A stretch of 41,009 nucleotides of DNA from an uncultured Bacteroidota bacterium (lineage in GTDB: Bacteria > Bacteroidota > Bacteroidia > 2-12-FULL-35-15): contig CAIQBY010000403.1 of the NCBI GenBank assembly GCA_903870175.1, positions 1 through 41,009 of the forward strand, in the 5' to 3' direction. Of the stretch, positions 4,113 through 41,009 are shown one piece after another (position 1 is the first letter of the stretch; each line of letters starts with the position of its first letter). The notes under the pieces were generated by a model that was given only the letters and a program-made list of their open reading frames with translations, was not told where the DNA came from and made no database searches. Both the position numbers and the translations under genes were made by a program.

Positions 4113-4989
4113 CCATTTTTCAAGTACTCGTTTCTTTGTGTTCAGCAAGGAAATCTATTCTTTAGTTTTTATTCTTGCTGCTATTCTCACTTTTTCTTCC
4201 TGCAAAAATCAACAGAAACTATTAACTCTTAATAATGGCAAATGTCTATTGGATTATAAAAATGCAAAAACACTAACAGCTAAATTAAAAGCAAATGAAT
4301 TTCATTTTAATAAACTAAATGCAAAATTAAATATAGAATCAACTATTGACAGCACTTCCAATTCGTTCACTGTAAATTTACGGATGAAGAAAGATAGTGT
4401 AATCTGGATGTCGATTTCTAAATTTGGAATAGAAGGAGCAAGAGTAATGATAACACGCGACTCCGTGAAACTCACAATAAATTTCGGGGATAAAAAATAT
4501 TTTAAAGGAAACTTCTCATACATAAGTAAATTATTAAATACCGATTTGGATTTTGAAATTGTTCAGTCTCTGTTAATTGGAAACAGTGTTGAGTTTTATG
4601 ATGATGATGAAAAACTGAAACCCGGTTCCAGCAATTGTCAATACACCCTTGGAACTATCAGGAAACATAAATTAAAAAAAGTAATGGAGAAGGGAAAAGA
4701 GTTGAAAGAATCGGCACAAAGTATATATATGATTCCTGAAACATTCAAGATTTCCCGTATCCTTTTTTATGAGTTTAATCCGGATAGGAATCTGGATGTC
4801 AAATATAAAGAATACGCTAAAGTTGATTCAACTCAACTGTTACCACTTAAAATGAATTTGACTTTTAAAGGACAAAAAAATATTAATATTGATATAACAT
4901 ATACTAAAACTTCTTTAGATCAGGAACAAAGTTTCCCTTTTAAAATACCTGAAGATTATGAGCAAATTGTTTACAAGGAAAAAAAGTAG
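4105..4989 (+). CDS. DUF4292-like lipoprotein
   Basis: Lipobox-like 'ILTFSSC'; start chosen at internal ATG 4105 overlapping the upstream stop; fold and gene context resemble Bacteroidota DUF4292 proteins next to EnvC-like peptidases. Confidence 0.72.
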   Translation: MSNHFSSTRFFVFSKEIYSLVFILAAILTFSSCKNQQKLLTLNNGKCLLDYKNAKTLTAKLKANEFHFNKLNAKLNIESTIDSTSNSFTVNLRMKKDSVIWMSISKFGIEGARVMITRDSVKLTINFGDKKYFKGNFSYISKLLNTDLDFEIVQSLLIGNSVEFYDDDEKLKPGSSNCQYTLGTIRKHKLKKVMEKGKELKESAQSIYMIPETFKISRILFYEFNPDRNLDVKYKEYAKVDSTQLLPLKMNLTFKGQKNINIDITYTKTSLDQEQSFPFKIPEDYEQIVYKEKK

Positions 4990-10033: not shown

Positions 10034-10160
10034 GGGACACGGAGCATTTTTTATGACATCGCGAGCGTTTTTTACGGGACACCGAGCATTTTATATGACA
10101 TCGCGTGAGCAAAAAATAGGACACTTAGTGTTTTTAAGACATCGCGCGAGCAAAAAATAG
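10034..10160. repeat. Degenerate 21-bp-period tandem array, about 6 units with alternating unit types (~42-bp higher-order period)
   Basis: Units: GGGACACGGAGCATTTTTTAT / GACATCGCGAGCGTTTTTTAC / GGGACACCGAGCATTTTATAT (each 21 bp), then GACATCGCGTGAGCAAAAAATAG / GACACTTAGTGTTTTTAA / GACATCGCGCGAGCAAAAAATAG (indels). Confidence 0.8.
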
Positions 10161-19039: not shown

Positions 19040-19216
19040 AATAATCGCCTGCGACTTCTTGATAATTGCTAACGACTTCTTGATAATCGCTAACGACTTC
19101 TTGATAATTGCTAACGACTCCCCGATAATTGCTAACGACCTTCCGATAATTGCTAACGACCTCCCGATAATCGCTAACGACTCCCCGATAATCGCTAACG
19201 ACCTTTCGATAATCGA
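19040..19216. repeat. Perfect-register 21-bp tandem array, 8 units plus a partial
   Basis: Consensus GATAATYGCTAACGACYYYYY; unit starts at 19040, 19061, 19082, 19103, 19124, 19145, 19166, 19187, with a partial unit at 19208. Confidence 0.97.
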
Positions 19217-24898: not shown

Positions 24899-25150
24899 GT
24901 GCGTTGTTCCATCTCTTTTGAACGTTGTTCCTAAACTTTCGAACGTTGTTCCTTCAATTCCGAACATTGTTCCTCCTCATTCTAACATTCTCTCCTCACT
25001 TCTTGACGTCCTCTCTTCACTTCCTAACGTCCTCTCTCCACTTTCGAACGTTGTTCCTTCTCTTTTCAACGTCCTCTCCCAACTTCCGAACGTTGTTCCT
25101 CTTCTTTCTAACGTTCTCTCCTCACTTTTGAACGTTGTTTTCCAACTTTC
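24899..25150. repeat. 21-bp tandem array, 12 units with no indels, composed of two interspersed unit types
   Basis: Type A GAACGTTGTTCC..., type B NAACGTYCTCTC...; unit starts every 21 bp from 24899 to 25130. Confidence 0.97.
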
Positions 25151-39634: not shown

Positions 39635-40303
39635 TTATATAATCGGACTTGCAATAATTTTTGAATACTCTCCATCTCCTGCATCATTGCTGAAACATAC
39701 TGCTATATATGCAATCATTCCAATTTGATCTTCGGTAAATGGTATATCAAAACGCATAGTACCGCTTTCCATTTCTGCTTTCAGCATATCAATTGTAGGT
39801 ATTCCCGCTTTTGCATCAAGTACAATCATTACTACTTTTACGCGTTTTGTTCCTTTTGGTTTTGCTCCGCTTGATGGGTTGGCAACATCGCTCACCAGAT
39901 ATTCATTGTTCAAATGAGAAACCAATCGCTGAATAACAACTGCGGTGGCAGTTGGTTTTGAAGCTTTTGTTCTTGAAGCATCTTTGTGGATGTTGAAAAT
40001 AATAAAATCCAACTCTTCCAACGTAATTGATTTACTTGTTTTCAACTGCTGAGTAAGTCCATCAGTCACCAACTTACACATGCGATACACTTTATTTTGT
40101 ATTGCAATAGATAGTTTTCCATAGGTTTCAGGTTCTGTATAGTTTTGGAAAGCCTTGTCCCACTGATCTTTCAACAAAATTAATTCATCTTTTTGATCGT
40201 CACTAATTCCCAGACGAGTTTGATTAGCAGCATCTATTGCATAAGGCACATAAAAGCCGAAATAAAGATTGTAAAACACGATTGTTACACTGTAATTTAT
40301 CAT
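39635..40303 (-). CDS. Hypothetical protein
   Basis: Intact 222-aa ORF convergent with ispD and separated from it by a terminator; no family recognised. Confidence 0.75.
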   Translation of the reverse strand: MINYSVTIVFYNLYFGFYVPYAIDAANQTRLGISDDQKDELILLKDQWDKAFQNYTEPETYGKLSIAIQNKVYRMCKLVTDGLTQQLKTSKSITLEELDFIIFNIHKDASRTKASKPTATAVVIQRLVSHLNNEYLVSDVANPSSGAKPKGTKRVKVVMIVLDAKAGIPTIDMLKAEMESGTMRFDIPFTEDQIGMIAYIAVCFSNDAGDGEYSKIIASPII

Positions 40304-40585
40304 AATATTAAATTTAAATTGTTTACATTTTATTTTTATAACTCAAAAATAAAATCACAACTTTTATATTATGACCCTAATTGGAAGAGATATAGTCTAG
40401 TGTTACCCGACTCCTTCGAGGTTTGACAACTCTTTTTTGTAAAAGAATTACAGGGCAAAGGTAAACATATTTATGACCTGCAAGTTTTATTCCGCTTTTA
40501 TTTTCTTTTTTATTTATTACTCCGCTTTAGTCAATTTATTTTGTATTCGATTTGACATGAAAAGTATTAAAGGTCGAAATATGAA

Positions 40586-40809
40586 AATTAAGACTAATCA
40601 TGCCGTCATTAGTTCAAATGTACAGAACATTTGAACTAATGATGCGAACATTAGTTCAAATGACGCCGTCATTTGAACTAAATATCCGAATATTAGATCT
40701 AATTATGCTACCATTAGAACTAATTATGCCACCATTAAGTATAATGATGCGAACATTAAGACTAATCATGCCACCATTAGAACTAATTATGTCACCAATT
40801 AACCTAATT
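40586..40809. repeat. 21-bp-period array of 11 14-bp quasi-palindromic cores separated by 10 7-bp spacers
   Basis: Cores such as CATTAGTTCAAATG / CATTTGAACTAATG (alternating orientation) and CATTAGAACTAATT; spacers ATGCGAA, ATGCCAC, ATCCGAA etc.; spacing exactly 14+7 throughout. Confidence 0.96.
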
Positions 40810-41009
40810 GTGTTTATAATGGTTTTAGCATTTTGGAGGGTGGGAAAAAGGGTGTTTTTGGCCAGAAAAGGGGAAATGAAGGCAGGTTTCCGTGTATTCT
40901 TTAGGGAATTGTTCGGGAAGTTTTTCTCAGGGCGATTGTAGGAGGTTTTGGTTTTGGGTTATTATTATAAGGAGTAAATAATGATTTAGTACTTTTGGGA
41001 TTGTATAAA

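What the first reader, a model, noticed from the sequence alone, without database searches (positions are those of the whole stretch)
40586..40809. 40.6-kb array is built of alternating-orientation 14-bp quasi-palindromes with strict 7-bp spacers
Parsed by hand: AATTAAGACTAATC-atgccgt-CATTAGTTCAAATG-tacagaa-CATTTGAACTAATG-atgcgaa-CATTAGTTCAAATG-acgccgt-CATTTGAACTAAAT-atccgaa-TATTAGATCTAATT-atgctac-CATTAGAACTAATT-atgccac-CATTAAGTATAATG-atgcgaa-CATTAAGACTAATC-atgccac-CATTAGAACTAATT-atgtcac-CAATTAACCTAATT. Cores 2/3 and 3/4 are perfect 14/7/14 inverted repeats, and many cores approximate the dyad ATTAGnnCTAAT. Spacers vary within a narrow pattern (A-T-G-C-x-A-x). This resembles an array of dimeric protein operator sites, or a potential multi-hairpin RNA or DNA.
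Basis: seen in the sequence. Interest (0 to 1): 0.75.

Follow-up and report, generated by a model that had tools for sequence, protein, structure and literature searches.

The report
Genome-wide 21-bp dyad repeat arrays
The repeat array is real and is one of roughly 240 spacer-located arrays in this uncultured Bacteroidota genome; they share a repeat length of two DNA turns and often mirror symmetry, but each has its own sequence, which suggests that spacing and symmetry matter more than the letters.

Summary
Window 40586-40809 holds eleven 14-bp cores and 7-bp spacers in strict 21-bp register, with dyad cores and three consecutive inverted units (2, 3 and 4).

It is not a private operator array. 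In an unbiased 461-kb sample of the same genome, 28 of 33 non-coding tandem arrays have period 21, 42 or 63 (within 1 bp), which extrapolates to about 240. In 1.36 Mb around queA in 80 Bacteroidota contigs only two have period 21. Unit sequences differ from array to array, yet 33 of 57 show significant dyad symmetry. Several same-genus genomes have such arrays; others sampled have none.

The window array has a second copy elsewhere (array 91%, flank 83%). Its right flank is dispersed in two species and almost always lies downstream of a 21n array, usually of unrelated sequence. Between the two species an array can be present or absent, can keep its place but change its units, or can be replaced by a different 21-bp array.

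Best reading: a clade-restricted, dispersed intergenic minisatellite element resembling P. gingivalis BrickBuilt, but with fixed period and free sequence. It probably acts as a helically phased row of dimer-sized binding sites; the binding step is inferred. Coding and strong curvature were tested and not supported.

The parts
40586..40809 (.). 21-bp-register array: eleven 14-bp cores (consensus CATTAnnnnTAATn, dyad ATTA....TAAT) and ten 7-bp spacers
40607..40662 (.). units 2, 3 and 4, cores alternating exactly in orientation; units 2/3 give a hairpin of about 17 bp
40534..40585 (.). left flank shared with the C319 copy (49 of 52 identical); GGTCGAAAT just before the array is also shared with C372 and C285
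40810..41009 (+). right flank ('tail'), a dispersed sequence found in about 20 loci of G000 and G012, nearly always downstream of a 21n array
40980..40998 (+). promoter-like AATGATTTAGTACTTTTGG (fits the Bacteroidetes -7 element TAnnTTTG, from memory), 11 copies with at most 1 mismatch in the genome; would drive transcription to the right, past the contig end
   Evidence: function inferred
40600..40941 (+). ORF of 113 aa running through the array, judged spurious: no Pfam match, substitutions between the two copies spread 8/7/5 over codon positions, arrays in general no more open than permuted ones
10035..10160 (.). another 21/42-bp array with a different unit (CATCGCGAG...), between polA and the glutamyl-tRNA reductase gene
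19052..19213 (.). another 21-bp array (GATAATTGCTAACGACTTCTC), convergent spacer between a TPR gene and uvrC
24902..25139 (.). another 21/42-bp array (CGAACGTTGTTCCTCCTCTTT), after tRNA-Leu

Best explanation
The array is one member of a clade-restricted class of dispersed, non-coding elements in the intergenic DNA of a Bacteroidota genus. Its body is a minisatellite of about 8-20 units kept in a 21-bp register (two helical turns), often with a dyad in each unit. SHOWN: the register recurs in nearly all non-coding arrays, unit sequences do not; arrays with flanks are copied to new places; they are gained, lost or replaced between related species; homologous arrays changed their core letters while staying dyad-symmetric. 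INFERRED: the array works as a row of dimer-sized sites on one face of the helix, occupied cooperatively by a DNA-binding protein (a nucleoid-type protein, or one that spreads or maintains the element), so that phase and symmetry are constrained and sequence is nearly free. It is not the private operator of a neighbouring gene.
For: Period: 28 of 33 non-coding arrays in an unbiased 461 kb are 21n, about 240 extrapolated; intergenic autocorrelation peaks only at 21, 42, 63 and 84. Clade: 16 arrays in about 343 kb of seven same-genus genomes, none in about 303 kb of eleven others; two with period 21 in 1.36 Mb of other Bacteroidota. Dyads: 33 of 57 arrays at p < 0.05, where about 3 are expected. 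Coherent core switch between homologous arrays: covariation 0.186 against 0.088 +/- 0.025 in shuffles. Element: second copy on C319 with no indel inside the array; the tail lies downstream of a 21n array in 20 of 21 places, 17 of them within 200 bp. Turnover: array absent in G012 (5 bp instead of about 286 bp), a different array beside the same tRNA, and orthologous arrays with new units.
Against: No binding protein was identified. About 40% of arrays show no significant dyad. There is no unit-by-unit compensation within arrays. The common period could be inherited from one ancestral array and need not be selected. Terminal inverted repeats are absent in most copies, so the way it spreads is unknown. 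Nearly all data are draft MAGs; short-read assembly limits array length and may misjoin contigs at repeats.
Confidence: 0.42

Rival explanations
1. Neutral minisatellites: one ancestral 21-bp array spread by recombination and its descendants diverge by slippage and concerted evolution. The period is shared by descent, and dyads are by-products of hairpin-assisted slippage. No function.
For: Arrays occur in all spacer types in proportion; presence, absence and replacement between species; mismatch to indel ratio of about 12:1 inside arrays is not unusual.
Against: Dyad symmetry recurs in arrays of unrelated sequence and survived a coherent change of core letters between homologous arrays; the period hardly departs from 21n.
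Confidence: 0.27
2. Transcription-factor operator array controlling the adjacent gene: dimers bind the ATTAGnnCTAAT dyads about 200 bp upstream of the TAGTACTTTTG promoter.
For: Dyad, two-turn spacing, position upstream of a repeated promoter-like motif; in E. [quoted passage not shown] 21 bp centre to centre (PMC6640053).
Against: About 240 arrays with different cores; convergent spacers; different arrays at the same place in related species.
Confidence: 0.12
3. RNA element: the transcribed array folds into a row of hairpins (stability, termination or attenuation).
For: Strong folding against dinucleotide shuffles on both strands.
Against: The window array lies upstream of the leftward gene and of the rightward promoter-like motif, where no transcript is expected; several arrays lack dyads; RNA pairing gives no reason for a two-turn period; no Rfam match reached its gathering score.
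Confidence: 0.1
4. Intrinsically curved DNA: a 21-bp period adds up static bends whatever the sequence.
For: In a wedge model, periods of 20-22 bp give slightly more curvature than periods of 16, 18, 24 or 26.
Against: Arrays are barely more curved than other intergenic DNA (0.874 against 0.915, p = 0.053) and equal to column-permuted arrays (p = 0.89).
Confidence: 0.06
5. Coding repeat: 21 bp = 7 codons, a heptad-repeat peptide (ORF 40600-40941).
For: The frame is open through the array in both copies.
Against: Substitutions fall evenly on codon positions; open frames are no more frequent than in permuted arrays (p = 0.20), 30% of arrays have none, and variability is equal at the three codon positions.
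Confidence: 0.02

Closest known systems
BrickBuilt (Porphyromonas gingivalis; PMC4596501)
   Same: Bacteroidota; intergenic minisatellite with imperfect units, dispersed in the genome, flanked by conserved 'leader' and 'tail' segments
   Different: 23-bp units of one sequence family, 19 copies, terminal inverted repeats in part of the copies; here 21 bp, about 240 arrays of many unrelated sequences, mostly without terminal inverted repeats
MITE464/PgRS of P. gingivalis (41-nt tandem repeats; PMC4596501)
   Same: Intergenic element with internal tandem repeats of about four helical turns
   Different: One sequence family, about 10-20 copies, terminal inverted repeats like an IS5 element
REP/BIME elements and RAYT transposases
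   Same: Intergenic palindromic units, sometimes in alternating orientation (from memory)
   Different: REPs share one sequence family; here units differ per array. Y1_Tnp (PF01797) genes do not follow array content across the genus
ArgR operators: paired ARG boxes in E. coli (PMC6640053)
   Same: Semi-palindromes 21 bp centre to centre on one face of the helix
   Different: Two boxes of one consensus at specific genes, not long arrays of free sequence

Membership tests
BrickBuilt / minisatellite-bearing MITE | tandem repeat body located between genes | tested here: met
BrickBuilt / minisatellite-bearing MITE | same repeat unit sequence in all copies, 23 bp | tested here: not met
   21 bp, unit sequence differs per locus
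BrickBuilt / minisatellite-bearing MITE | conserved flanking segment shared by copies | tested here: met
   tail shared by about 20 loci; only a subset of all arrays
BrickBuilt / minisatellite-bearing MITE | terminal inverted repeats | tested here: not met
   a 12-bp inverted match only in C403/C319, none in 8 other element loci; none at the G000-only array site
BrickBuilt / minisatellite-bearing MITE | insertion into an otherwise conserved empty site | tested here: inconclusive
   one spacer holds about 286 bp in G000 and 5 bp in G012; direction and target-site duplication unclear
REP/BIME with RAYT | presence of a cognate RAYT (Y1_Tnp) gene in array-bearing genomes and not in others | tested here: not met
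   PF01797 in 30 of 37 genomes, array-rich and array-poor alike
Operator array of a dimeric regulator | dyad sites in phase with the helix | tested here: met
Operator array of a dimeric regulator | one consensus shared by the sites of the regulator | tested here: not met
   met inside an array, not between arrays
Operator array of a dimeric regulator | protein binding | not testable with these tools
   needs pulldown or ChIP
CRISPR array | identical repeats with unrelated spacers | tested here: not met
   the spacers are themselves repeats of one motif

The most novel reading that the evidence does not exclude
A genome-wide element class defined by geometry and not by sequence: hundreds of intergenic arrays whose only common specification is a 21-bp (two-turn) register with dyad units, read by a protein that recognises phased symmetry and tolerates nearly any letters, so that arrays can swap sequence and place while keeping function.
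Probability: 0.2. Interest if true: 0.85.

Novelty: new variant of a known kind. Interest (0 to 1): 0.6.

Why it matters
Bacterial repeat families are normally recognised by shared sequence. Here the shared trait appears to be the period and symmetry, so similarity searches cannot see the class; only an autocorrelation scan does. If a protein reads it, that would be a mode of genome organisation coded by spacing. If it is neutral, it shows a mutational process with a two-turn ruler, or the spread and drift of one ancestral array. These readings can be told apart by experiment. The arrays also lie where gene order changed in several comparisons.

Tried and rejected
Coding heptad repeat: rejected. 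Intrinsic curvature: no clear signal. RAYT/REP: no phyletic match. Rfam: nothing over a gathering score. Classical MITE with terminal inverted repeats: not general. Within-array covariation: an early positive result (p = 0.0008) came from choosing the axis by the observed pairing; with the axis chosen from column composition it vanished (p = 0.30) and was dropped. Specific promoter association for all arrays: dropped, since spacer types are hit in proportion. Orthologous spacers of uvrC and of the enoyl-CoA hydratase gene in G012 were not syntenic. The literature searches found no description of such 21-bp arrays in open-access papers; subscription papers were not covered.

Full report
OBSERVATION. 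TRF finds periods 21 and 42. Lag-21 identity reaches 0.79 over 84 bp against about 0.29 in the genome's intergenic DNA, and shuffled sequence gives no arrays. Cores 2, 3 and 4 alternate exactly in orientation; the others are mostly direct repeats with a dyad core ATTA....TAAT. Folding of either strand is far better than in dinucleotide shuffles, mostly from the inverted units 2/3 and 4/5.

CONTEXT. The window is a whole contig (C403) of a 3.95-Mb, 423-contig draft genome. Its nearest relatives in the named collection are uncultured Bacteroidota MAGs. The array lies between a gene read leftward (39635-40303, no Pfam match) and a promoter-like motif at the contig end (40980-40998). The same window holds three other 21-bp arrays with other units.

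A GENOME-WIDE CLASS. In 723 kb sampled from this genome most tandem arrays have period 21, 42 or 63. Restricted to a subset of contigs picked by number and not by any match (461 kb), 28 of 33 non-coding arrays are 21n, about 240 for the genome, and 24 of 103 non-coding stretches of 300 bp or more hold one. Intergenic autocorrelation peaks at 21, 42, 63 and 84 only. In 1.36 Mb around queA in 80 other Bacteroidota contigs only two arrays have period 21. Within the genus, seven relatives (G012, G004, G005, G032, G035, G043, G044) carry 16 such arrays in about 343 kb, and eleven others none in about 303 kb. The samples are small, so the split is approximate.

SEQUENCE FREE, SYMMETRY COMMON. Units differ from array to array, for example CGGTTTGAACCG, AACTAGnCTAGTT, GGGAAGCTTCCC, TGACATATGTCA. 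With the dyad axis sought in each 21-column profile and compared with column-permuted profiles, 33 of 57 arrays are significant at 0.05 and the combined p is about 1e-36. Some are plainly not dyadic. A first test seemed to show compensation between units of one array; this was a selection effect and vanished when corrected. Between homologous arrays, however, the core changed coherently: C403/C319 have mostly G-C at pair 6/9, while C372, C285 (same left flank GGTCGAAAT and similar spacers ATGCCAC) and G012 C413 have T-A or C-G (covariation 0.186 against 0.088 +/- 0.025 in shuffles, and above all slid versions). Relatedness of units inflates this control, so it is supportive and not proof.

A DISPERSED ELEMENT. 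The array with both flanks recurs on C319: array 204 of 224 identical, no indel inside it; right flank 159 of 191. Pieces of the right flank occur at about 20 other places in G000 and G012. Of 21 places examined, 20 have a 21n array on the upstream side (17 within 200 bp, the others at about 0.4, 0.7 and 0.8 kb), mostly of unrelated unit sequence; one tail copy in C319 has none. By array density alone about 6% would have one within 1 kb. Part of these places share only the promoter-like motif AATGATTTAGTACTTTTGG, followed by small accessory genes, often after a hairpin GTTGTTGGTGnnnnCACCAACAAC. An inverted match between the two ends was found only for C403/C319, so this is not a typical MITE.

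TURNOVER BETWEEN SPECIES. (a) L124 array 1 and the array in G012 C456 are orthologous by flank (84%) and by a shared last unit, but the other units differ; both have period 21. (b) L124 array 3 is absent in G012, where 5 bp stand for about 286 bp. (c) Beside the same tRNA, G000 L129 and G012 C28 carry different 21-bp arrays, and the array homologous to that of L129 sits elsewhere in G012 (C425). Gene order breaks at or next to several arrays. MAG contamination and misassembly cannot be excluded for single cases.

MECHANISM. What the arrays share is register and, in most, symmetry. A 21-bp register places equivalent positions on one face of the helix, and a dyad is the usual footprint of a dimer; E. 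coli ArgR uses two 18-bp semi-palindromes separated by 3 bp, i.e. 21 bp centre to centre (PMC6640053). I therefore commit to a phased binding platform in a dispersed element, with the binding step inferred. The main rival is neutral descent of all arrays from one ancestral 21-bp array. Coding, curvature, RAYT association and known RNA families were tested and not supported.

COMPARISON AND NOVELTY. Closest is BrickBuilt of P. gingivalis, a 23-bp minisatellite with leader and tail (PMC4596501). It shares the architecture, but BrickBuilt copies share their unit sequence and some carry terminal inverted repeats. The present class has one period and many sequences. I file it as a new variant of a known kind (dispersed intergenic minisatellite element), not as a BrickBuilt member.

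Noticed in passing
L009 (C319) 2530-2553 and 4791-4814; L169-L182: Palindrome GTTGTTGGTGnnnnCACCAACAAC, 14 places in the genome, mostly just downstream of TAnnTTTG promoter-like motifs and before small accessory genes: possibly a repeated 5'-UTR hairpin.
   Followed up: partly
L009 (C319), L323, L324, L317: Recurring sequences such as GAACGCACGTAACGAACTTTATCGCAACG between small accessory ORFs recall gene-cassette junctions; whether this is an integron-like array was not tested.
   Followed up: no
L021 1050-2145, L326, L328: A spacer with a GGGAAGCTTCCC array is about 97% identical between G000 C30 and G012 C240 although the species differ clearly in proteins such as IspD (78%): recent transfer, strong constraint or MAG contamination.
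   Followed up: partly
L213, L186 (G002): G002 carries 14-bp tandem arrays (CAACTAACAACTAG) while no 21-bp array was seen in its 40-kb sample.
   Followed up: no
L315, L316, L206, L328: A repeated terminator-like hairpin AAAAAAGTCCCGAAnnnnTTCGGGACTTTTTT lies beside several arrays.
   Followed up: no
L329 (G000 C33:42000-43354): A weak Y1_Tnp (RAYT-like) match lies about 0.7 kb downstream of a 21n array; a single case.
   Followed up: no
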